Shown here in pieces: positions 11,461 through 56,928 of a stretch of DNA of 57,114 bases. Source of the stretch: Prevotella sp. CAG:1058. Its GTDB lineage: Bacteria > Bacteroidota > Bacteroidia > Bacteroidales > Bacteroidaceae. Every line of letters starts with the position of its first letter. The first letter of the stretch is position 1. The notes beneath the pieces are model-generated. The model was not told the origin of the DNA, did no database searches, and saw only the letters and a list, made by a program, of their open reading frames with translations. The translations under genes and the position numbers were made by a program. The stretch lies in NCBI GenBank assembly GCA_000433175.1, contig HF986650.1:1-57114 (forward strand). The letters are read 5' to 3'.

Positions 11461-12333
11461 TTATCCGAGATATTTCATCAGTATCTTTGCATTACCACTT
11501 TCCCTTAATTTGGCAATACTTTTTTCTCTGATTTGGCGTACACGTTCACGCGTAAGACCTAACTGGTCGCCGATTTCCTCAAGTCCTTTTTCATGGCAAC
11601 CTATACCGAAACACTCGCGGATTATGGTTATTTCGCGTTCTTTCAGTACCTTGCTTAAGACGGTATTGAGTTCCAATGCCATTGATTCATGGTCGACTAC
11701 ACGGTCAGTACGGCTGTCGTCTCCGCTTGGCATCACGTCAAGCATACAGTTGTCCTCACCGTCCTGAAACGGCGCGTCAATACTTACATGGTGACCGTCT
11801 GCAGCTAATGACTGGCCTATCTTCTCCTCGTCAAGTTTGGTCATTTCGGAAAGTTCAGATACAGATGGGTGTCTTTGGTTTTCCTGTTCAAACTTGTTTA
11901 TTTCGTGATTGATTTTATTTAATGAACCTACCTGGTTTAATGGCAGGCGCACAATACGGCTTTGTTCGGCAATAGCTTGGAGAATACTTTGACGAATCCA
12001 CCATACGGCGTATGATATGAACTTGAATCCACGTGTTTCATCAAATTTCTGGGCCGCTTTGATAAGACCAATATTGCCTTCGTCAATCAAGTCTGTTAAT
12101 GTGAGTCCCTGGTGCTGATATTGCTTGGCTACTGAAACGACGAAACGTAAATTTGCTGTGACAAGCTTGTTTTTCGCCCTTTCTCCTTCGGGGCCTCCTT
12201 TCCTGATTTTTTGTGCTAGTTCAATTTCCTCGTCAATAGAGATTAATGGAGCGCGTCCGATTTCAACAAGATATTTGTCTAAAGCCTCACTTGAACGGTT
12301 GGTAATACTTTTTTGAATCTTTAATTGTCTCAT
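11461..12333 (-). CDS. rpoD: Primary RNA polymerase sigma factor (sigma-70 type)
   Basis: 290 residues. It directs RNA polymerase to housekeeping promoters. Region 1.2 (DKYLVEIGRAPLISIDEE), region 2 (VVSVAKQYQHQGLTLTDLI, FKFISYAVWWIRQSI), region 3 (HPSVSELSEMTKLDEEKI) and region 4 (GLEEIGDQLGLTRERVRQI) are all present. Region 1.1 is absent, as is normal for the Bacteroidota primary sigma, which is much shorter than E. coli RpoD. Its recognition sites are the TTTG/TAnnTTTG promoters found elsewhere in this window. A TAATTTTG -7 candidate on the minus strand is at 12404-12411, with no good -33 partner. Confidence 0.96.
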   Translation of the reverse strand: MRQLKIQKSITNRSSEALDKYLVEIGRAPLISIDEEIELAQKIRKGGPEGERAKNKLVTANLRFVVSVAKQYQHQGLTLTDLIDEGNIGLIKAAQKFDETRGFKFISYAVWWIRQSILQAIAEQSRIVRLPLNQVGSLNKINHEINKFEQENQRHPSVSELSEMTKLDEEKIGQSLAADGHHVSIDAPFQDGEDNCMLDVMPSGDDSRTDRVVDHESMALELNTVLSKVLKEREITIIRECFGIGCHEKGLEEIGDQLGLTRERVRQIREKSIAKLRESGNAKILMKYLG

Positions 12334-15198: not shown

Positions 15199-15286
15199 CA
15201 AAAGGTTGTCTTTTAGCGTGCAAAAGATAGCCTTTTGTCACGCAAGAGATAACCTTTTGCAAGCTAATAGGCCGCCTTTTGAAAGC
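15199..15286. repeat. Array A: four 22-bp palindromic units
   Basis: Units lie at 15199-15220, 15221-15242, 15243-15264 and 15265-15286, contiguous and exactly 22 bp each. The core pattern is CAAAAGG-N3-CCTTTTG followed by a 5-bp variable spacer. The second unit reads CAAAAGATAGCCTTTTG. The array lies in the ~640-bp gap between dnaB and ileS, ~225 bp upstream of the ileS promoter. The same architecture recurs at 44634-44721 and 55441-55528. Short reading frames across it are not believable genes. Nothing else was recognised in this gap apart from the possible terminator and the ileS promoter. Confidence 0.85.
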
Positions 15287-15579: not shown

Positions 15580-18500
15580 ATGGCCGATAAATTTGCCGAA
15601 CACAAAGGTCTTGACTTGACCGCAACAAACAAAACTATATTAGAGGAGTGGAATAAGAACGACGTGTTCCATAAATCAATAACCGAGCGTGAAGGTTGTC
15701 CCCAGTTCGTATTTTTCGAGGGACCTCCTTCGGCCAACGGTCATCCTGGCATTCACCATGTACTTGCCCGTACTATAAAAGACACCTTCAACCGTTACAA
15801 GACGATGAAGGGTTTTCAGGTACACCGCAAGGCCGGATGGGATACTCACGGACTGCCTGTCGAGCTTGGCGTTGAGAAAGATCTTGGCATAACAAAGGCT
15901 GATATTGACAACAAAGAGTCAGATAAATACATATCAGTTGAAGACTACAACCATAAGTGCCGCGAGAATGTGATGAAGTTCACTGCCGAGTGGCGCAGCC
16001 TGACGGAAAAGATGGGGTATTGGGTCGACCTTGACCACCCTTATATTACTTACGACAATAAGTATATCGAAACTTTGTGGTGGCTGTTGAAGCAGCTCTA
16101 CGACAAGGGTCTCTTATACAAGGGATACACAATCCAGCCTTATTCACCGGCAGCAGGAACTGGCTTGTCAAGCCACGAGCTCAACCAGCCAGGTTGTTAC
16201 CGCGACGTAAAGGATACTACTGTTACGGCGCAGTTCGCCATGAAAGACCCAAAGCCTGAAATGACGGAGTGGGGCAAGCCGTATTTCCTGGCATGGACCA
16301 CCACGCCCTGGACTCTTGCCGCTAACTCTGCATTGTGCGTTGGCCCCAACATCGATTATGTTGCAGTGCAGACTTACAATCCTTATTCGGGCGAGCCCAT
16401 CACGATTGTAATGGCCGAGGTGCTTGTAAGTTCGTATTTCAACGCGAAAGGCGAGGGCATGGACCTGTCTGAGTACAAGAAAGGCGACAAGGTTATACCT
16501 TATAAAATTATAGCACATTATAAGGGCACCGACCTTGTAGGCATGCACTATGAGCAGCTTCTGCCTATGATTAGCCCGATGACCGATGGCGCGTTCAAGG
16601 TAATCCCCGGCGATTATGTTACGACGGAGGACGGTACCGGCATTGTGCACATAGCTCCTAATTTTGGTGCTGATGACGCAAATGTGGCTAAGAAGGCAGG
16701 TGTGCCGCCTATTGTACTGATTGACAAGAAGGGCAACCAGCGCCCGGTTGTAGACCTTGAAGGCAAGTATTATGTCATTGACGACCTTGACGAAGAGTTT
16801 GTAAACAAATATGTGAATGTTGAAGCATGGAACCGTTATGCCGGACGCTACGTGAAGAATGCTTACGATGAAACTCTTACGGACAAGGACGAAACGCTCG
16901 ATATAACGATATGTATGGACTTGAAGGCGCGCGGCATGGCCTTCAAGATAGAGAAGCACGTACATAACTATCCGCATTGTTGGCGTACAGACAAGCCGAT
17001 ATTGTATTACCCGCTTGACAGTTGGTTTATCCGTTCGACTGCATGCAAGGACAGGATGGTGGAGCTTAACAAGACCATCAACTGGAAGCCTGAGAGCACA
17101 GGTACGGGACGCTTCGGTAACTGGCTTGAGAATCTTAACGATTGGAACCTCAGCCGCAGCCGTTTCTGGGGTACTCCTCTTCCCGTATGGCGTGACGAGG
17201 ATGGCAACGAGATATGCATAGGTTCATTGCAAGAGCTTTACGATGAAGTGGAAAAGAGCGTTGAGGCTGGGTTTATGGCTTCAAACGTAATGAAGGATAA
17301 AGGATTCGTGCCGGGTGATTATTCACAGGAAAATTATGACAAGATAGACCTGCACCGACCATATGTTGACAATATAATATTGTGCAGCAAGTCTGGCAAG
17401 CCCATGAAGAGGGAAACCGATTTGATAGACGTGTGGTTCGATTCAGGCAGCATGCCTTATGCTCAGATCCACTATCCGTTTGAAAACGCTGATGCGATAG
17501 ATAAAGGATTGGCATTCCCTGCCGACTTCATTAATGAAGGTGTCGACCAGACGCGCGGTTGGTTCTTCACGCTCCATGCCATAGCTACTATGGTGTTTGA
17601 CAGTGTTGCGTTCAAGAACGTTATTTCGAGTGGTCTTGTGCTTGATGCTAAAGGCAACAAGATGAGCAAGCGTTTGGGTAATGCCGTAGATCCTTTTGAG
17701 ACGATAGAGAAATATGGTGCCGATGCTGTGCGCTTCTACATGCTTACCAACTCGTCGCCTTGGGACAACCTTAAGTTTGACCCCAACGGCGTGGATGAGG
17801 TGCGCCGCAAGTTCTTCGGTACGCTGTATAATACATATTCGTTCTTTAGCCTTTATGCTAATGTAGACGCATTTGACTGTTCGCAGGAGGTAATACCCGT
17901 GAAAGAGCGTCCGGAGATAGACCAATGGATAATTTCGGAGCTTAATTCGCTCGTTAAGGGTGTTGACAATGCGCTTTCAGATTATGAGCCGACAAAGGCC
18001 GGCAGGTTGATCGATGCTTTCGTAAACGATGATTTGAGTAACTGGTATGTCCGTCTGAACCGTAAACGTTTCTGGGGTAAGGAAATGGACAAGGACAAGC
18101 TTTCAGCATATGAAACTCTTTACACTTGTCTTGAGACAGTGGCAAAGTTGCTTGCGCCGTTCTCTCCATTCTATTCAGACCAGCTTTACATGGATCTTGT
18201 TAGGGCTACAGGACGCAAGGATGTCGAATCCGTGCATCTTACGGAATTCCCCGTAGCTGACGAAAGTCTGATGGATAAGAATCTGGAAGCACGTATGAAG
18301 ATGGCCCAGAAGATTACTTCCATGGTGTTGGCTTTGCGCCGCAAGGTCAATATTAAGGTGCGCCAGCCGTTACAGTGCATCATGATTCCTGCTGTTGACG
18401 AAGTTCAGCGCCAGCGTATCGAGGCTGTGAAGAACCTCATTGTAAACGAGGTGAACGTAAAAGAGTTGAAGTTTGTCGAAGGAGCTGGTGTTTTGGTTAA

Positions 18501-19011
18501 GAAAGTTAAGTGCAACTTCCGTACCATGGGCAAGAAGTTTGGCAAACTGATGAAGAGCATAGCAGGACAAATTGAGGTACTTTCACAGGAGGATATTGTA
18601 GCATTCGAAAAGGCAGGAATGATTACGTTGCAAGTTGACGGACAGGAAGTTACCGTTGAGGCTGGTGACGTTGAAATAATCAACGAAGACATACCTGGAT
18701 GGCTTGTTGCCAATGACGGAAACCTTACTGTTGCGCTCGAAGTCGAACTTAATGAGAGTTTGCGTAATGAGGGAATGGCGCGTGAGTTGATTAATAGGAT
18801 TCAGAACTTACGTAAGGAATGCGGTTTGGAAATTACTGACCGTGTTAATATAACCATATCGTCAGACAACCGCATTGAGTCGGCTATTGCCTCGTTTGGT
18901 GAATATATTAAGGGCCAGGTTCTTGCCGATAGTATAGTTGTTGCTGATAATGATGGCAACGAGGTAGACTTGGATGAGCTTAAAGTGAGAATTAAGGTAG
19001 CCAAAGTATAA
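15580..19011 (+). CDS. ileS: Isoleucyl-tRNA synthetase
   Basis: 1143 residues. It charges tRNA-Ile with isoleucine and edits misactivated valine. The class I signature HIGH appears as GHPGIHH (54-60), and KMSKR lies at ~694-698 (GNKMSKRLGN). The editing domain in the CP1 insertion includes AWTTTPWTLAANSALCVGP and the tRNA-binding region follows in the C-terminal third. It is longer than the ~940-residue E. coli enzyme and resembles the second (eukaryotic-like) IleRS type, which often tolerates mupirocin; that subtype assignment is inference. No T-box leader is visible. The gene precedes the DksA-like gene by 158 bp; this gap holds an 11-bp inverted repeat (19041-19051 with 19096-19106). Confidence 0.97.
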   Translation: MADKFAEHKGLDLTATNKTILEEWNKNDVFHKSITEREGCPQFVFFEGPPSANGHPGIHHVLARTIKDTFNRYKTMKGFQVHRKAGWDTHGLPVELGVEKDLGITKADIDNKESDKYISVEDYNHKCRENVMKFTAEWRSLTEKMGYWVDLDHPYITYDNKYIETLWWLLKQLYDKGLLYKGYTIQPYSPAAGTGLSSHELNQPGCYRDVKDTTVTAQFAMKDPKPEMTEWGKPYFLAWTTTPWTLAANSALCVGPNIDYVAVQTYNPYSGEPITIVMAEVLVSSYFNAKGEGMDLSEYKKGDKVIPYKIIAHYKGTDLVGMHYEQLLPMISPMTDGAFKVIPGDYVTTEDGTGIVHIAPNFGADDANVAKKAGVPPIVLIDKKGNQRPVVDLEGKYYVIDDLDEEFVNKYVNVEAWNRYAGRYVKNAYDETLTDKDETLDITICMDLKARGMAFKIEKHVHNYPHCWRTDKPILYYPLDSWFIRSTACKDRMVELNKTINWKPESTGTGRFGNWLENLNDWNLSRSRFWGTPLPVWRDEDGNEICIGSLQELYDEVEKSVEAGFMASNVMKDKGFVPGDYSQENYDKIDLHRPYVDNIILCSKSGKPMKRETDLIDVWFDSGSMPYAQIHYPFENADAIDKGLAFPADFINEGVDQTRGWFFTLHAIATMVFDSVAFKNVISSGLVLDAKGNKMSKRLGNAVDPFETIEKYGADAVRFYMLTNSSPWDNLKFDPNGVDEVRRKFFGTLYNTYSFFSLYANVDAFDCSQEVIPVKERPEIDQWIISELNSLVKGVDNALSDYEPTKAGRLIDAFVNDDLSNWYVRLNRKRFWGKEMDKDKLSAYETLYTCLETVAKLLAPFSPFYSDQLYMDLVRATGRKDVESVHLTEFPVADESLMDKNLEARMKMAQKITSMVLALRRKVNIKVRQPLQCIMIPAVDEVQRQRIEAVKNLIVNEVNVKELKFVEGAGVLVKKVKCNFRTMGKKFGKLMKSIAGQIEVLSQEDIVAFEKAGMITLQVDGQEVTVEAGDVEIINEDIPGWLVANDGNLTVALEVELNESLRNEGMARELINRIQNLRKECGLEITDRVNITISSDNRIESAIASFGEYIKGQVLADSIVVADNDGNEVDLDELKVRIKVAKV

Positions 19012-43826: not shown

Positions 43827-44444
43827 TTATTGCCTTTCTTCAAACGGTATCCTGTTTTTTATAGACCTTCCAAGTGTGACTTCGTCGGTGTATTCTAGTT
43901 CGTCGCCAACAGAGATTCCCCTGGCAATGACGCTTAGCTTAACTCCCGATTTTGCCAATTTCCTGTATATGTAAAAATTAGTGGTGTCTCCTTCCATTGT
44001 CGAGCTGAGTGCTAGTATTACTTCTTTTATGCCGCCTTCATTCACACGCTCTACCAGCGAGTCAATCTCGATGTCGTTTGGCCCTATGCCGTCCATTGGA
44101 GAGATGACACCACCCAATACATGGTACAAGCCGTTGAATTGTTGGGTGTTTTCTACAGCAATAACGTCCTGTACGTTTTCAACCACGCATACCGTTTCTT
44201 TGTCACGGTGCGTGTTTGAGCATATCGGGCAGATTTCAGTGTCACTTATGTTGTGGCATATCTTACAGTGCCTTATTTCTTTGCGCATGGCGCTTATTGT
44301 GTTGACAAAACGCTCAACCTTGTCCTCGTCTTGCTTTAGTATGAATAGGGCAAGCCTCAAAGCTGTTTTTTGTCCAATACCGGGCAGTCCGGAAAGTTCG
44401 CTGACGGCCTTGCTGAATAGTTGTGACGGATATTGTTGTATCAT
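43827..44444 (-). CDS. recR: Recombination mediator protein RecR
   Basis: 205 residues, usual length. It works with RecO and RecF to load RecA at ssDNA gaps. N-terminal Hh[20 protein letters not shown]; the four-Cys zinc finger [16 protein letters not shown] (~57-72); the Toprim domain beginning [14 protein letters not shown]; and the C-terminal segment [17 protein letters not shown]. It is the first gene of a four-gene minus-strand operon with a promoter directly upstream. The partners recO and recF are not in the window. Confidence 0.96.
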
Positions 44445-44633: not shown

Positions 44634-44721
44634 CAAAAGGTAGCCTTTGGGCGTGTAAAAGGTTACATCTTACATGATAAAAGGCATCCTTTCTCAGCGT
44701 AAAAGGATGCCTTTGGGTTCC
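44634..44721. repeat. Array B: four 22-bp palindromic units
   Basis: Units at 44634-44655, 44656-44677, 44678-44699 and 44700-44721, exactly contiguous. The first reads CAAAAGGTAGCCTTTGG plus spacer; the others begin TAAAAGG. It has the same 22-bp period and copy number as the arrays at 15199 and 55441. It lies in the gene-free stretch between the end of feoAB and the recR promoter. Apart from the stem-loop at 44743-44771 nothing else was recognised there. Confidence 0.85.
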
Positions 44722-44866: not shown

Positions 44867-47296
44867 TCATAATATCAGCATGCCTGTTTGGTAGACGCAG
44901 GCTGATACGATCCATGCCAATAGCGTTGTGTATCCGGCTGCGAAGACCGCCCATTTCCAACTGCCTGTTTCGCCTTTTATAGCTGCTATGGTTGCTATGC
45001 AGGGGAAATAGATGAGTACGAACAGCAGGTAAGAGAACGCTATGAGTGGTGTCATTCCGTCTGTTTCCATCTTTTGTCGCAATACTCCATATTTGCCTGA
45101 GTTGTCTGCCGTATCGTCAGCAACGGTTTCGTCGTCGGCATAAAGTACGCCCATGGTTGAGGCTACAATTTCTTTTGCGCCGATGCCAGCAACGAGGCTT
45201 ACGTCAAGCTTCCAATCGAAGCCTTGTGGACGGAATACCGGTTCTATGGCTTTGCCTATGCGCCCGATGTAGCTCTGCTCTTTTTGCGCCTGGTTGCTCA
45301 AGCTTTCGTCATGCGGGAAATATCCTAATGCCCACACAATAACACTGGCAACAAGGATTATTCCACCCATTTTCTTGAGGTATTGCTTGCCTTTTTCCCA
45401 TGTGTGCCTGGCTATGGCTTTAGCGGTGGGGAAGCGGTAAGGCGGTAGCTCCATTACGAATGGGGTATCGTCGCCTTTTATCATCCATTTGCTGAAAATA
45501 CGGCTCATCAGTACGGCAAGGATTATGCCGATTGCATAGAGTGAAATCATGATGACCGACTGGTACTCGACGGCGAAAAACGTGCCAATTATCATTATGT
45601 ATATTGGTAGTCTTGCACTGCAGCTCATCAACGGCAGTACAAGTATTGTAATTAGCCTGTTCCTGCGGTTTTCTATTGTGCGTGTGGCCATTACAGCTGG
45701 AACGTTGCAACCGAATCCCATGATGAGTGGTATGAAAGATTTGCCGTGAAGGCCCATCTTGTGCATCAGTTTGTCCATGATGAACGCGGCTCTTGCCATG
45801 TAGCCGGAATCTTCCATGAACGAAATGAAGAAATAAAGGATGAGTATCTGTGGAAGGAACACTATTACAGCACCGACTCCGGCTATGGCCCCATCTGCAA
45901 TCATGTCTTTCAACGGTCCGTCTGGCATCGTCGATTTTACCAAACCGCCCAATGCGTTCACTCCGGCTTCAATCCAGTCCATGGGGTATTGTCCTAACGT
46001 GAACGTGACCTCGAACATGATATAAAGAAACAGGAAGAATATCGGAAAACCGACGTACTTGTTGGTAATTAAGGAGTCTAGTACGTGGGTAAGCTGGTAT
46101 GTATCGGTGCGTGTACCTTCCTCGCATCCGGCTTCGTGCAGAGCGCCATGTATAATTCCATATTTCGCGTTCATAATGGCTGTCTCGCTGTCTTCCTTGG
46201 TTTCGGTCATTATATATTCGGCGGCTTTGTCACGCGTGGCAATTATTTCTTCCCCGTTTGGCAATGACTTTACGAAATTTTCTATGTTGGAGTCTTTTTC
46301 CAACAATTTAATCGACAAGAAGCGTGTGGAATATTTATATCTTATTTGTTCATCCTTCTGTATCTCCTTCTTTATTTCGTCTATGGCCTGCTCGATATAT
46401 TTGCCATGGTTCAGGTGTACGTGTCGTTGGCGGTTCTTACCTTTCAGGCTTTCTCCTTCGTATACGTTGATTACAGTATTGAAAAGTTCATCCACACCTC
46501 TTCCGTTTCTGAATACTGTTGGGACGAGCGGAATGCCGAATAGTTCTCCAAGCTTGTCGTAATCCAATTTGTCGCCGCGCGATTCGAATTCGTCGAACAT
46601 GTTAAGCGCCCCGACAATCTTGAGGTTCATGTCGACCAGTTGCGTGGTAAGGTAAAGGTTGCGTTCAAGGTTGCTCGCATCAATGACGTTTATTATTACG
46701 TCTGGAGTTTTGTCGATAATCTGCTTGCGTACGTAAAGCTCTTCTGGGCTGTAGGCTGAAAGTGAATAAGTTCCGGGCAGGTCGACAAGATTGAATTGGT
46801 AACCGGCATATTCGGCACGACCCTCTTTGGCGTCAACGGTTACGCCGGAATAGTTGCCTACACGTTCGTGTGCGCCGGAAGCGAAGTTAAATAGTGACGT
46901 CTTGCCACAGTTTGGATTGCCAACAAGGGCTATGTTGATTATGTGGCTCTTTTTTAGTGCAGCCTTGTGTAACCGCTCGTCGGTAAAACGGCCATCATCG
47001 TCGTTTGTGTTGTCTGATATCTCTGCCAGTCCAAGTTTCTGTGCTTCCTCTTCTTCCAATTGACGGGCTTCTTCGGTAGAAATGATTTCAATCATCTCAG
47101 CCTCGGAGTGGCGAAGTGAGATTTCGTATCCCATTATTTTGTATTTTACAGGATCTTGAAGTGGAGCGTTTAATAAAACTGTTACCATCTTTCCTCTTAT
47201 AAAGCCCATCTCTACGATGCGCTTGCGGAAGCCTCCATGTCCTAAAACTTTTACAATTACTCCTTTTTCGCCTGTATTTAATTCGGATAGTCTCAT
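44867..47296 (-). CDS. feoB: FeoA-FeoB fusion ferrous iron transporter
   Basis: 809 residues. It imports Fe(II) across the inner membrane. The first ~73 residues are a FeoA SH3-like domain (MRLSELNTGEKGVIVKVLGH); an acidic linker follows. The FeoB G domain starts NIALVGNPNCGKTSLF (G1, 126-133) with DLPGTYSL as G3. About eight membrane helices fill ~410-809, with the Gate regions (FLPQILILYFFISFMEDSGY; MGFGCNVPAVMATRT; MSCSARLPIYIMIIGTFF). Fusion of FeoA to FeoB is usual in Bacteroidales. Separate FeoC is absent. Regulation by iron is likely; a possible Fur-type site lies upstream at 47372-47387. Confidence 0.96.
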   Translation of the reverse strand: MRLSELNTGEKGVIVKVLGHGGFRKRIVEMGFIRGKMVTVLLNAPLQDPVKYKIMGYEISLRHSEAEMIEIISTEEARQLEEEEAQKLGLAEISDNTNDDDGRFTDERLHKAALKKSHIINIALVGNPNCGKTSLFNFASGAHERVGNYSGVTVDAKEGRAEYAGYQFNLVDLPGTYSLSAYSPEELYVRKQIIDKTPDVIINVIDASNLERNLYLTTQLVDMNLKIVGALNMFDEFESRGDKLDYDKLGELFGIPLVPTVFRNGRGVDELFNTVINVYEGESLKGKNRQRHVHLNHGKYIEQAIDEIKKEIQKDEQIRYKYSTRFLSIKLLEKDSNIENFVKSLPNGEEIIATRDKAAEYIMTETKEDSETAIMNAKYGIIHGALHEAGCEEGTRTDTYQLTHVLDSLITNKYVGFPIFFLFLYIMFEVTFTLGQYPMDWIEAGVNALGGLVKSTMPDGPLKDMIADGAIAGVGAVIVFLPQILILYFFISFMEDSGYMARAAFIMDKLMHKMGLHGKSFIPLIMGFGCNVPAVMATRTIENRRNRLITILVLPLMSCSARLPIYIMIIGTFFAVEYQSVIMISLYAIGIILAVLMSRIFSKWMIKGDDTPFVMELPPYRFPTAKAIARHTWEKGKQYLKKMGGIILVASVIVWALGYFPHDESLSNQAQKEQSYIGRIGKAIEPVFRPQGFDWKLDVSLVAGIGAKEIVASTMGVLYADDETVADDTADNSGKYGVLRQKMETDGMTPLIAFSYLLFVLIYFPCIATIAAIKGETGSWKWAVFAAGYTTLLAWIVSACVYQTGMLIL

Positions 47297-53821: not shown

Positions 53822-55126
53822 TTACTCGACTTTCCACTTCATGAACCAACGTTCGTTGAATGTTATGCCGATGTTTATTCTGAATGTGTTTTCTTTAAGC
53901 ATGCCTGGGGCTTCCGAACGTACCCATTGGCCTGATATGTTCAGTATTGAACGGTTGTTGTATGCATTTACAATAGGTATGCCGAAACCTACGCTTACGC
54001 TTATTTCGTCAGGTCCGTCCTGTCCGTTTACTTTGTAGTATGATGATGCGTATGATGCACCGGCACGGAAGCGTATTCGGTTTATAAAATTACGGCTTGT
54101 TTCGTTATTGCAGAATTCACCGCCTATGGTAAGCTTGTATCGGTCTGAATAATACTCGTCAGACAGGCTGTATGACGGTACATCATTTATTACTTTGTAA
54201 ACCGGGAACTTTGTGTCACCCCATTTTTGATATGTGAAATCTGCTCCTAGTTTCAATTTGTTATTGTTATTCCATGTTAGTCCGGCGCCAAATGATGTCG
54301 GTATCTCAAGTCCGTTGTTGACGGTGAACGATGTCGTATCTGCTACGGCGGTTGTCGTATTGGTTGAAATCACCATGCATGACGGGTCTGAATTCAACTT
54401 GTGTCCAAGGCCGTATGTGAGACCTAAGGTCAACGAATTCTTCTTGTTCAGCGGCAAAGTGTATTGCAATCCAAAGTCAATCCTGTAACTGCTTATTGTT
54501 GCTGTATAATATTTTGAGAGCGTGTTTATATAGCCGTCGCTGTAACTGTTTACGACAGAACGGTCTATGTCTCCCCAAATATAAGATACGTTGGCACCGA
54601 TTGAAAGCCCTTTGACGAATTCCCAACCTGCACCCAAGTAAATTTGGTGCATGCCGCCACTACCATTATAAGTGTTTGTGAAAGTGGTGCTCTTGTCGCC
54701 GTTAAGGTAGCCGCTTATTGAGTAATTATAGCCTATGTTTGTAAATGGAATTATACCGAAGCTTACGCCTAGATGTTTGCTTGCACGGAATGCTGCTACT
54801 GCATATTCGAAGTCGGCGTTGTTTGCATTCTTTTTTTGTCCGTTCTCACTGAAATTGGTAACTTGTCCGGAAAGACCGGCATCGAATATGAAAGTCAATG
54901 AGTCGATGGATGAATATGATGCAGGGTTGATGTAATTAACTTGGTTGTGTTCCCTGAAACCTAATCCTAGACCGTTCATTCCACGGTTGAATCCGCTTGT
55001 CTGCTCGCTTAATTGTCCTAATCCGTACTGACTGTAAGGCGAATTTGTGCCGCTCTGGGCTATGGCTGGCGCTACGTAGAGCGATGCCAATAGAACCGTG
55101 CCGATTATTTTTTTATGTAAAATCAT
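53822..55126 (-). CDS. Outer-membrane beta-barrel protein (FadL/OmpP1-like)
   Basis: 434 residues from the ATG at 55126 (MILHKKIIG), with a signal peptide ending AIAQ. A longer frame starting at 55177 lies across the promoter-like site and is rejected. The mature protein opens SGTNSPYSQYGLGQLSEQ and contains NYINPASYSSIDSLTF, seen in a conserved Bacteroidota porin-like family. The remainder alternates hydrophobic and polar residues with Gly/aromatic-rich strands (FGLQYTLPLNKKNSLTLGLT, RFRAGASYASSYYKVNG). The likely role is a transport or structural barrel. It is in one unit with lptC. Confidence 0.83.
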   Translation of the reverse strand: MILHKKIIGTVLLASLYVAPAIAQSGTNSPYSQYGLGQLSEQTSGFNRGMNGLGLGFREHNQVNYINPASYSSIDSLTFIFDAGLSGQVTNFSENGQKKNANNADFEYAVAAFRASKHLGVSFGIIPFTNIGYNYSISGYLNGDKSTTFTNTYNGSGGMHQIYLGAGWEFVKGLSIGANVSYIWGDIDRSVVNSYSDGYINTLSKYYTATISSYRIDFGLQYTLPLNKKNSLTLGLTYGLGHKLNSDPSCMVISTNTTTAVADTTSFTVNNGLEIPTSFGAGLTWNNNNKLKLGADFTYQKWGDTKFPVYKVINDVPSYSLSDEYYSDRYKLTIGGEFCNNETSRNFINRIRFRAGASYASSYYKVNGQDGPDEISVSVGFGIPIVNAYNNRSILNISGQWVRSEAPGMLKENTFRINIGITFNERWFMKWKVE

Positions 55127-55174
55127 CTTTATTTTTTCTATGCAGTTAAAGTCCCATCGGACAAAAAACGTTTG

Positions 55175-55206
55175 CAAAGGTGGGCATTTTTTCTGAAAAA
55201 TCCAAA
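55175..55206 (-). promoter_or_regulatory. Promoter for the outer-membrane protein-lptC unit
   Basis: On the minus strand: TTTG (55203-55206), 20 bp, CACCTTTG (55175-55182), one base off the -7 consensus. It is ~50 bp before the chosen start codon at 55126. Confidence 0.5.
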
Positions 55207-55440: not shown

Positions 55441-55528
55441 TAAAATGTAGCCTTTTGACTCTCCAAAGCTAACCTTTTGTCTTTTAAAAGGTGGTCTTTT
55501 GCAAGGTAAAATGCAGCATTTTGAAAAC
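55441..55528. repeat. Array C: four 22-bp palindromic units
   Basis: Units at 55441-55462, 55463-55484, 55485-55506 and 55507-55528, exactly contiguous. The fourth has arms AAAATG and CATTTT: compared with the consensus AAAAGG/CCTTTT, the G-C pair has become T-A on both sides, so base pairing is kept. It sits between divergent genes, the outer-membrane protein (minus) and the DUF4105 protein (plus). No other feature is visible in the rest of this ~560-bp gap except the upstream promoter. Confidence 0.85.
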
Positions 55529-55689
55529 AGTATCTAAAGTCCTTGATAAATAAACACTTGTGTGCCTTGAGTAGGACAGGGGGGAGTCTGTGGATTGTTT
55601 GTGCGCTGTATGTGCCGTGATGTCATTCTATTGACATTTTCTTTTCAGCACACAAAATTATTGTTTTTTTTGAAATAATAGTGCGCCAA

Positions 55690-56928
55690 ATGAGAAATAT
55701 GAGCTATTTTTGCATCGTGAAACTCAAAGGATATATCATAAAGCTGTTGACGATGTGCTTGATCTCGCTGAATATCAGTGGGATACGTGCTGCTAATAAT
55801 GCAGGCACAGCTTCTTCGGAACACGATTCGATAAGGATAAGTTTGCTGACATGCTCGCCTGGAAGTGAAGTTTACAGTCTTTACGGTCATACGGCTATAA
55901 GATATACTGACTATGGTAAAGGTATAGATGCAGTTGTAAACTACGGCGTATTCTCGTTCAATAAGCCTTTTTTTATATTAAGGTTCATTTTTGGAATAAC
56001 GGATTACGAGATGGGGATTGTGCCTTATGAGTATTTCAAATTGGAATATGGTGAGGAGGGTAGGTCTGTTGTCCAACAGGAACTGAATCTGTCCGCCGAA
56101 GAAAAGGCAGCCATCCGTGATGCCATAGAATTAAATTACCAGCCACAAAACAGGACTTACCGGTACAATTATTTTTATGATAATTGTACTACTCGCGCGC
56201 GCGACATATTAATAAATAATATGCAGCGCGTCGTCTCATTCCCTGGCAAGGAGAAACGATATCCGTCTTACCGTGAATTGATCCATTCGTTTAACGAAGA
56301 TTATCCATGGGCACGTTTTGGAAATGATATTCTGTTAGGTTTCAATGCAGACAGAAGTACTTCGGTTAGCGAGCACCAGTTTTTGCCGTTCCTTTTGAAG
56401 GAAGATTTCGACAGTGCTGTCATAACGAACTCTGACGGGACCACGCAGCCGTTGGTCGTACAGTCATCTGTTATAGTTGATTGCCCGTCTGTGGGCGCAG
56501 ACGGAGGCTTCCCGTTGCGGCCGTTGCAATGTGCGTGGATGATATTTTTCGTGGTAGCAATAATTACACTTATAGAGGCTTTAAAGAGAAAAAAGCTATG
56601 GCTGTTTGACACAATTATGATGGTATTTGTCGGCTGTTTGGGCATTGTTGTTTTCATGATGCTTTTTTCTGAACATCCAGCTACGAGTACAAACCTTCAG
56701 GTGTTGCTGCTCAATCCGCTGCCGTTGTTTTTTGTTTACCGCGTGGCTAAAAATGCATGCAGGCATAAGGCTGACAAGTTTTGGAATTGGAGTATGCTGC
56801 CAATAGCATTATTTTTTATTGGTGGCTTTTTTCAACAATATGCAGAGGGAATGTACGTTTTGGCATTATCTTTGCTGGTAAGAAGTGTGTGGAATATTAT
56901 TTATCAAAAGAAATATCTATCTGCCTGA
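55690..56928 (+). CDS. DUF4105 family membrane protein
   Basis: 412 residues from the ATG at 55690; GTG codons at 55681 and 55720 are in frame. The 55720 start would give a cleaner signal peptide (KLKGYIIKLLTMCLISLNIS), and a TATTTTTG -7-like site at 55705-55712 would favour it, but it has no -33 partner. The DUF4105 domain (~45-260) has LLTCSPGSEVYSLYGHTAIR and the NYFYDNCTTRARDIL motif, where conserved His/Asn/Cys resemble a cysteine-peptidase site (inference). About four to five hydrophobic helices occupy the C-terminal third. The next gene begins 1 bp after its stop. Confidence 0.85.
   Translation: MRNMSYFCIVKLKGYIIKLLTMCLISLNISGIRAANNAGTASSEHDSIRISLLTCSPGSEVYSLYGHTAIRYTDYGKGIDAVVNYGVFSFNKPFFILRFIFGITDYEMGIVPYEYFKLEYGEEGRSVVQQELNLSAEEKAAIRDAIELNYQPQNRTYRYNYFYDNCTTRARDILINNMQRVVSFPGKEKRYPSYRELIHSFNEDYPWARFGNDILLGFNADRSTSVSEHQFLPFLLKEDFDSAVITNSDGTTQPLVVQSSVIVDCPSVGADGGFPLRPLQCAWMIFFVVAIITLIEALKRKKLWLFDTIMMVFVGCLGIVVFMMLFSEHPATSTNLQVLLLNPLPLFFVYRVAKNACRHKADKFWNWSMLPIALFFIGGFFQQYAEGMYVLALSLLVRSVWNIIYQKKYLSA

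What the first reader, a model, noticed from the sequence alone, without database searches (positions are those of the whole stretch)
15199..15286. A family of intergenic arrays with exactly four 22-bp palindromic units (array A)
Seen directly: four contiguous 22-bp units. The core is CAAAAGG-N3-CCTTTTG (17 bp), followed by a 5-bp variable spacer. Two further arrays in the window (44634-44721 and 55441-55528) have the same unit, the same exact period and the same copy number of four. Individual bases have diverged, but no unit has gained or lost a base, so length and phase seem to be kept. A period of 22 bp is close to two helical turns, which would put all four dyads on one face of the DNA. 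This suits a cooperative binding array for a dimeric protein, or four successive RNA hairpins. I know of no described element with this layout. Function is unknown; this array lies upstream of the ileS promoter.
Basis: partly seen in the sequence, partly recalled or inferred. Interest (0 to 1): 0.85.

Follow-up and report, generated by a model that had tools for sequence, protein, structure and literature searches.

The report
Evenly spaced four-palindrome DNA arrays
Prevotella-like bacteria carry, between their genes, short DNA blocks built mostly from four mirror-symmetric sites exactly 22 letters apart; the geometry is kept while the letters change, which points to docking platforms for a DNA-binding protein that is not yet known.

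Summary
The three window arrays are real. The window's genome is not held, but five close relatives carry hundreds of unit pairs each (reversed-pattern control 0-3). In sampled contigs unit starts are 22 bp apart 366 times, 21 twice, 23 never; fifth units are rare. Of 94 arrays 93 avoid predicted genes; none of 157 assigned arrays shares its gap with another, and spacing is more even than in matched permutations (CV 0.54 versus 0.77). A letter-free scan of 80 Prevotellaceae loci singles out period 22 with an odd centre (26 hits; 0 at periods 20 and 23), with different palindromes in different species and several types per genome. Arms within units do not covary, which disfavours hairpins. Best explanation: a phased dock for about four dimers of a sequence-specific DNA-binding protein with an architectural or insulating role. 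Binding, stoichiometry and role are inferred. The protein is unknown: Y1 transposases do not track the arrays, and the two common Lrp/AsnC proteins are unlikely.

The parts
15199..15286 (.). Array A: four 22-bp units at 15199, 15221, 15243, 15265; between dnaB (ends 14936) and ileS (starts 15580)
   Evidence: PWM score 74; letter-free score 156 of 196; gene names
44634..44721 (.). Array B: four 22-bp units at 44634, 44656, 44678, 44700; between feoB (44867-47296, minus) and recR (43827-44444, minus)
   Evidence: PWM score 46; letter-free score 146; gene names
55441..55528 (.). Array C: four 22-bp units at 55441, 55463, 55485, 55507; between divergent bamG-like (53822-55177, minus) and lnb-like (55681-56928, plus) genes
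   Evidence: PWM score 63; letter-free score 146; gene names (the Lnb model match is below its cut-off there; two Pfam Lnb domains are over cut-off)
15580..19011 (+). ileS, isoleucine--tRNA ligase; the anchor used to fetch 80 related loci
   Evidence: TIGR00392 1023.6 bits, cut-off 621.4

Best explanation
Each array is a double-stranded DNA docking site for about four dimers of a sequence-specific protein, one dimer per 17-bp palindrome. Steps of 22 bp (two helical turns) put all dyads on one DNA face. The dimers bind side by side, perhaps as one octamer with 88 bp of DNA bent or wrapped on it. In Marseilla-like genomes one such complex would sit roughly every 5 kb between transcription units and act as an architectural or insulating mark; the even spacing suggests a chromosome-scale role rather than regulation of single genes. 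Shown: geometry, slot number, intergenic placement, even spacing in two genomes, rarity of phase breaks, lack of hairpin covariation, presence at the same place in one pair of close genomes. Inferred: that a protein binds, that it is a dimer, that four act together, wrapping, and the role. Unknown: the protein.
For: Geometry: unit starts 22 bp apart 366 times, 21 twice, 23 never; 44 bp 222, 66 bp 97, 88 bp 8. Slots outside the four hold a unit in 0-4% of 94 arrays. Letters vary by class: on 120 arrays found without any letter pattern, positions 1 and 7 (pooled with 17 and 11) show 33% transitions and 1.2% and 0.3% transversions (same picture on PWM-called arrays), a readout of purine/pyrimidine class and not random decay. 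No arm-arm covariation within units; the centres of units 3 and 4 match as reverse complements (z 5.5) while their outer positions do not (z 0.1), as expected for a symmetric assembly and not for a stem. 93 of 94 arrays do not overlap predicted genes; 2 of 136 letter-free arrays do. Gap CV 0.54 versus 0.77 (lowest of 500 permutations 0.595); gaps under 2.5 kb 8.5% versus 24.9%; 157 assigned arrays of 165, each alone in its gap. In a pair of close genomes 8 of 8 mappable arrays of one (of 16 called) are in place in the other; of 9 mappable arrays of the other (of 20) 8 are, and the ninth has a sub-threshold copy. Published analogue: Sulfolobales BarR (Lrp type) is predicted to use 4-5 regularly spaced semi-palindromic sites two helical turns apart, with DNA wrapped on an octamer (passages of PMC10201364).
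Against: No binding protein found; the two common Lrp/AsnC proteins have the same HTH motif in genomes with and without type-A arrays. Several array types per genome need several proteins or loose specificity. Not all four slots are equally kept: they pass in 59-87% (G002) and 82-96% (G005), and by a strict unit pattern clusters of 2 to 6 units are seen, 3 or 4 being commonest. Between G063 and G099 arrays have no fewer substitutions than flanks (61 of 703 versus 327 of 4070). Over all types runs of 4 are 34 of 60, with 13 of 3 and 9 of 5. Even spacing was measured in two genomes only, with my own gene caller. Presence at orthologous gaps between Marseilla-like species was seen in 2 gene pairs and contradicted in 3.
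Confidence: 0.55

Rival explanations
1. The arrays are non-autonomous mobile repeats (REPIN- or MITE-like) moved by an unseen transposase; the 22-bp sites are transposase binding sites and even spacing is target immunity.
For: Hundreds of dispersed copies; in G063/G099 the copies belong to a longer conserved element of about 280 bp; an adjoining B motif lies beside arrays for 13 of 17 hits; well-localised rearrangement joints lie near arrays in 5 of 6 cases; 3 of 5 occupied orthologous gene pairs among Marseilla-like species hold an array in one genome only.
Against: Y1 transposase PF01797 has no match in 5 of the 10 type-A genomes tested; other transposase families were not tested. Mappable arrays of G063 and G099 are in place in both, no empty site seen. 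Phase breaks expected of decaying copies are rare. No viral contig carries the exact three-unit pattern. No terminal repeats or target duplications seen by eye in the 60 of 94 Marseilla flank pairs printed.
Confidence: 0.2
2. An RNA element: four successive hairpins, or one long hairpin formed by paired units, acting in transcripts as terminator, stabiliser or attenuator.
For: Units are palindromic; units 3 and 4 pair at 15 or more of 17 positions in 25 of 94 arrays; 12 of 39 tandem arrays start within 34 bp of the upstream stop codon.
Against: No covariation of arms within units; for units 3-4 only the centre covaries, not the variable outer pairs; G-U and A-C mismatches are about equally common. 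Arrays lie in divergent, tandem and convergent gaps, with no orientation preference in tandem gaps. No Rfam match.
Confidence: 0.1
3. BIME-like topological element: a gyrase or nucleoid-protein landing site that absorbs supercoiling between transcription units, recognised by shape and not by one specific protein.
For: Even spacing, intergenic position, A-tract and YR-step pattern with 11-bp phase in type A.
Against: The GTG..CAC type does not show the same A-tract phase (by eye); divergent gaps are most often occupied, 52 of 82, versus 23 of 69 convergent, not what positive supercoiling downstream of genes predicts.
Confidence: 0.15

Closest known systems
Lrp/AsnC-family operator clusters (BarR of Sulfolobales; passages of PMC10201364 and PMC2995911)
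   Same: Several 13-17-bp semi-palindromic sites, 4-5 regularly spaced by two helical turns, octamer of four dimers, DNA wrapped
   Different: Described for single control regions, not hundreds of intergenic arrays; the two common Lrp proteins here keep the same HTH motif in genomes with and without type-A arrays
Lambda-type operator regions (recalled, not looked up)
   Same: 17-bp imperfect palindromes in tandem with short spacers, bound cooperatively by dimers
   Different: Three operators per site with 23-24-bp steps, two sites per phage; not genome-wide in a chromosome
Stoperators of Cluster A mycobacteriophages (passages of PMC6550527)
   Same: Many dispersed repressor sites; the site motif differs between related phages, with repressor preference for the cognate site
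   Different: Single asymmetric sites oriented with transcription, on phage genomes; here symmetric multi-site arrays without orientation preference in tandem gaps
BrickBuilt MITE of Porphyromonas gingivalis (passages of PMC4596501)
   Same: Bacteroidota, intergenic, short tandem units; the paper mentions 22-nt tandem direct repeats in strain W83 without detail, which I could not compare
   Different: 23-nt units, number variable (18 full repeats in one copy), found 19 times in ATCC 33277, leader and tail with inverted ends like IS5-family IS
REP/REPIN/BIME elements (recalled; PMC3116915 seen in a search listing only)
   Same: Many intergenic palindromic copies with lineage-specific sequence
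   Different: One or two hairpins linked to Y1 transposases; here phased multi-unit arrays with no link to Y1 transposases

Membership tests
REPIN/REP (RAYT-linked) | Y1-type transposase (PF01797) in the genome | tested here: not met
   No match in 5 of 10 type-A genomes (G001, G004, G063, G099, G143); matches in 8 of 16 genomes without type-A excess, one of them below cut-off
REPIN/REP (RAYT-linked) | Hairpin-forming palindrome kept by compensatory changes | tested here: not met
   Within-unit covariation z -2.1 to 1.0, -2.0 to 0.6
Lrp/AsnC octamer operator | Several phased palindromes of 13-17 bp, two turns apart | tested here: met
   17-bp palindromes every 22 bp; yardstick from passages
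Lrp/AsnC octamer operator | A cognate Lrp protein whose distribution or HTH follows the arrays | tested here: not met
   PF01037 in 26 of 26 genomes, with or without type-A arrays. Motif SGAAIHQR in 18 rows and SRAAIHQR in 13 rows from both groups; 7 of 43 rows were wrong-strand ORFs. A third, more variable group (G007, G063, G099, G011, G021; 5 rows) was seen and not followed; no row of it came from a Marseilla-like genome
MITE (BrickBuilt-like) | Terminal inverted repeats and target duplications; filled and empty orthologous sites | tested here: inconclusive
   None seen by eye in 60 of 94 Marseilla flank pairs; mappable sites filled in both G063 and G099; among Marseilla-like species 2 orthologous gene pairs filled in both and 3 in one
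Known structured RNA | Rfam match at gathering score | tested here: not met
   Only one tRNA in the window
Lambda-type operators | Cognate XRE-type repressor | not tested
   Recalled analogue; no search for a repressor was made

The most novel reading that the evidence does not exclude
A chromosome-wide docking system of fixed geometry and changing letters: roughly every 5 kb a four-dimer (octameric) protein-DNA complex sits between genes, and across Prevotellaceae the DNA-binding specificity has been replaced repeatedly while the 4 x 22-bp frame, and at some loci such as upstream of ileS the position, were kept. It would be a bacterial, sequence-specified counterpart of positioned nucleosomes with a fast-evolving binder.
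Probability: 0.3. Interest if true: 0.92.

Novelty: categorically new. Interest (0 to 1): 0.8.

Why it matters
A dense, evenly spaced set of intergenic sites with a strict ruler and replaceable letters would expose a chromosome-organising or insulating protein in a major gut and oral bacterial group, and gives a ready bait (88 bp of DNA) to fish it. The five papers opened here (PMC4596501, PMC5771137, PMC10201364, PMC2995911, PMC6550527; passages only) and the listings of searches showed no description of these arrays. Those listings are capped (20 of 30 papers, 20 of 642, 15 of 19,826) and the library holds open-licence papers only, so this is weak evidence of absence.

Tried and rejected
Lrp/AsnC as the binder: attractive by geometry, but PF01037 is in all 26 genomes tried and the two common orthologues keep their HTH motif. 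RAYT/REPIN: no link. RNA: no covariation, no Rfam match. Phage carriage: no viral contig with the exact three-unit type-A pattern. Position at ileS: outside Marseilla 11 of 39 ileS-upstream gaps of 200 bp or more hold an array versus 15 of 139 other gaps (Fisher p 0.010); arrays lengthen gaps, so this is suggestive only. Spread beyond Prevotella-like genomes: stretches of up to 20 kb from 20 order/phylum genomes (0.30 Mb) gave 7 hits at period 22, AT-rich by eye, against 3-5 at periods 20, 21, 23 and 25 and 6 at the even core; the type-A pattern (up to 1 mismatch) had 1 match in 40 order genomes and 3 matches in 2 of 40 phylum genomes besides G002. In the family sample 4 of 151 genomes (G002, G063, G099, G143) clearly exceed control; a fifth, G115, has 19/13 against 10/10. 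In 20 family stretches (18 of them 18-20 kb) 2 hits reach 105, both in G143, against 7 at the even core and 0-4 at other periods; G010 shows a five-unit AACTAACGTTAGTT array just below. Orthology among Marseilla-like species is thin: of 42 shared gene pairs with gaps of 100 bp or more, 37 lack an array in both, 2 have it in both, 3 in one only. Literature search for unit sequences returned unrelated papers among the 20 listed; PMC8040213, on candidate RNAs of human microbiomes, was seen in a listing and not opened. The reversed-sequence null is valid for a fixed pattern but not for palindromes in general, so the letter-free scan used shuffles and other periods. Even cores at period 22 give 5-6 hits in the 80 loci, 35 in G005 and 8 in G002; I did not resolve how many of these are type-A arrays scored off-centre. 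The class pattern rests on a PWM seeded with those classes, so I repeated it on arrays found without letters; it held.

Full report
WHAT IS THERE. The window holds three arrays of four contiguous 22-bp units at 15199, 44634 and 55441. Against CAAAAGG-N3-CCTTTTG their summed scores are 49, 46 and 47 of 56; the best spot elsewhere is 34 and the maximum over 40 Markov randomisations is 32. They lie between dnaB and ileS, between feoB and recR, and between two divergent envelope genes (names). The window's own genome is not held. Its ileS is 86-89% identical to those of Marseilla massiliensis (L001) and four MAGs (L002, L003, L006, L063), so the window is Prevotellaceae.

HOW MANY. A pattern of two units with up to two mismatches finds, forward/reverse, 612/603 unit pairs in G001 (M. 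massiliensis), 552/539 in G002, 165/185 in G003, 566/547 in G004, 677/697 in G005, 281/279 in G006 (Xylanibacter caecicola) and 33/32 in G007 (X. brevis); the reversed control pattern gives 0-3 in all but G006 (15/11). Matches overlap on the two strands and within arrays, so these are not array counts. In 0.62 Mb of G005 a PWM arrays, in 0.54 Mb of G002 58, and none in the reversed sequence.

FOUR SLOTS, 22 BP. In the 94 arrays of the first samples (39 from G002, 55 from G005) the four slots pass a score cut in 59-87% (G002) and 82-96% (G005), the slots outside in 0-4%. By a strict unit pattern clusters of 2 to 6 units are seen, 3 or 4 commonest. Distances between unit starts, over the G002 and G005 contigs plus the ileS loci of G001-G005, are 22 (366), 21 (2), 23 (0), 44 (222), 43 (2), 66 (97), 65 and 67 (1 each), 88 (8) and a few singles. 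The consensus is YRAAAGRYSRYCTTTYR with a spacer near CANNG. Variation goes by class. Because the PWM was seeded with those classes I repeated the count on 120 in-register arrays found without letters: position 1 (pooled with 17) has 33% transitions and 1.2% transversions, position 7 (with 11) 33% and 0.3%. Beside one end of many arrays lies a different palindrome, about CGTTGANNNTCAACGNNTTA (B motif); a strict form occurs 17 times in the G002/G005 contigs, 13 of them beside an array.

WHERE. One of 94 arrays overlaps a gene predicted by my own hexamer-based caller, and 2 of 136 letter-free arrays. Of 504 gaps of 100 bp or more, 157 hold one array and none holds two; 8 of 165 arrays were not assigned to such a gap. 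Divergent gaps are occupied most (52 of 82), then convergent (23 of 69) and tandem (82 of 353). In 39 tandem cases the array lies at least 48 bp from the next start codon and its orientation is indifferent to transcription (22 same, 17 opposite). Along the contigs the arrays repel each other: gap CV 0.54 against 0.77 in permutations among gaps matched by genome, type and length (lowest of 500: 0.595); 8.5% of gaps are under 2.5 kb against 24.9% (lowest 16.9%). Mean gap is 5.5 kb over 138 gaps.

NOT A HAIRPIN. If units folded as RNA or cruciforms, their arms should covary. Within-genome shuffles give z values of 1.0, -0.5, -2.1 and -0.1 for units 1-4, and 0.6, -0.2, -2.0 and -0.8 on the letter-free set. 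Units 3 and 4 match each other as reverse complements in their central seven positions (z 5.5); units 2 and 4 (z 3.0) and 1 and 2 (z 2.6) do so weakly. The outer ten positions of units 3 and 4 show nothing (z 0.1), although four of them vary. That is not a stem. It fits a protein assembly with a dyad between units 3 and 4 (inference).

GEOMETRY WITHOUT LETTERS. I scanned the 80 ileS loci (1.64 Mb, the five Marseilla-like ones included) for four palindromes sharing a half-site, whatever its letters. At a strict threshold period 22 with odd cores 15, 17 and 19 gives 24, 26 and 22 hits, even cores 5-6; periods 17, 19, 20, 23, 25, 26, 28, 29 and 31 give 0; periods divisible by three give 1-7 and period 32 gives 0-2; one shuffle of each locus gives 0. 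At threshold 108 there are 36 hits, 8 of them in the Marseilla-like loci. Unit examples: GGAAAGCATAACTTTCC (L019), TAAGAGCTTAGCTTTTA (L020, Hoylesella marshii), CGAAGCCCCGGGCTTCG (L037), CATCTAGACTCTAGAAT (L055, X. brevis), GCTTGCTTCGAGCAAGC (L015). At threshold 100 the 51 hits in the loci and window are all outside predicted genes, though several are AT-rich and doubtful. At 108, 28 of 80 loci hold at least one. A genome can hold several types: G063 and G099 have a CAAAAGGTGCCCTTTTG-like type inside a longer conserved element and a second GTG..CAC type; in X. brevis a TCTAGA type follows the first type in the same 22-bp register. Over 60 arrays of all types the run of units is 4 in 34, 3 in 13, 5 in 9, 7 in 2, 6 in 1 and 2 in 1; the detector looks for four, so three may be undercounted. 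In 80 kb of X. caecicola there are four type-A arrays, two of them with four good units, one with three and one weak, and other types; control periods 20, 21, 23 and 24 give 0 and the even core 5. Twenty order/phylum stretches show nothing convincing.

EVOLUTION. Aligned blocks of G063 and G099 are 90-97% identical. Of 16 called spots in G063 8 fall in aligned blocks and 8 have a counterpart in place in G099; of 20 in G099 9 fall in blocks, 8 have one and the ninth has a sub-threshold copy; one of the shared spots (76740) is AT-rich and doubtful. Across eight pairs arrays differ at 61 of 703 sites and flanks (partly coding) at 327 of 4070; gap events are 4 in arrays, all in one poorly aligned pair, and 43 in flanks. 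So letters drift about as fast as the flanks while the length seems kept. Of eight non-collinear joints six are localised to under 1 kb, and five of these lie within 300-600 bp of an array in one or other genome; the numbers are small and two joints share one array.

MECHANISM. Phased palindromes on one face, length kept and letters tolerant by class, even spacing and no orientation preference point to a DNA-level dock for about four dimers. The closest published picture is an Lrp-type octamer with four to five sites two turns apart and DNA wrapped around it (PMC10201364 and PMC2995911, passages). I tested membership: Lrp/AsnC genes are in all 26 genomes tried and the two common orthologues keep the motifs SGAAIHQR (18 rows) and SRAAIHQR (13 rows) in genomes with and without type-A arrays; 7 of 43 rows were wrong-strand ORFs and are ignored, and 5 rows of a third, more variable group were not followed (which residues form the recognition helix is recalled). 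Genomes without type-A excess may carry other array types, so this test is not complete. It may work like an Lrp array, but I do not file it as one. The change of letters with kept geometry resembles stoperators, whose motif differs among related phages with their repressors (PMC6550527, passages), and lambda operators (recalled). The binder remains open.

VERDICT. Real, found in many Prevotella-like genomes, strictly built and not described in the searches made. Mechanism confidence is moderate; the protein is unknown.

Noticed in passing
G002:C1 about 13203, 17165, 99534 (contig joined): Three places with about four copies of a 22-bp direct, strand-asymmetric repeat (GACGAGGGACAAGCGACAAGCA-like); same period, not an evident palindrome.
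   Followed up: no
L304 from about 11624 to 11850 (G006): A long 22-bp tandem array (ATGCGATAGATTTGTATctcat) of about ten units, unlike the four-unit arrays.
   Followed up: no
L081, L088, L055 6296-6500 (X. brevis): Two array types with different palindromes lie side by side in one 22-bp register (CAATAGTGCCACTTTTG-like, then TCTAGACTCTAGA-like).
   Followed up: partly
G063/G099 copies, e.g. L146, L165: There a five-unit array sits in a conserved element of about 280 bp whose two ends carry similar TGTAA..TTTTCA-like motifs.
   Followed up: partly
G063 C1 900-1100 kb versus G099 C2 500-700 kb: Five of six well-localised rearrangement joints between two close genomes lie near arrays.
   Followed up: partly
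window 15287-44633: No type-A array in 29 kb, a long gap compared with the 5.5-kb mean in relatives; the stretch around 26-36 kb has few confident genes in my caller and may be foreign. Window 35316 has a weak, undecided array-like spot.
   Followed up: no
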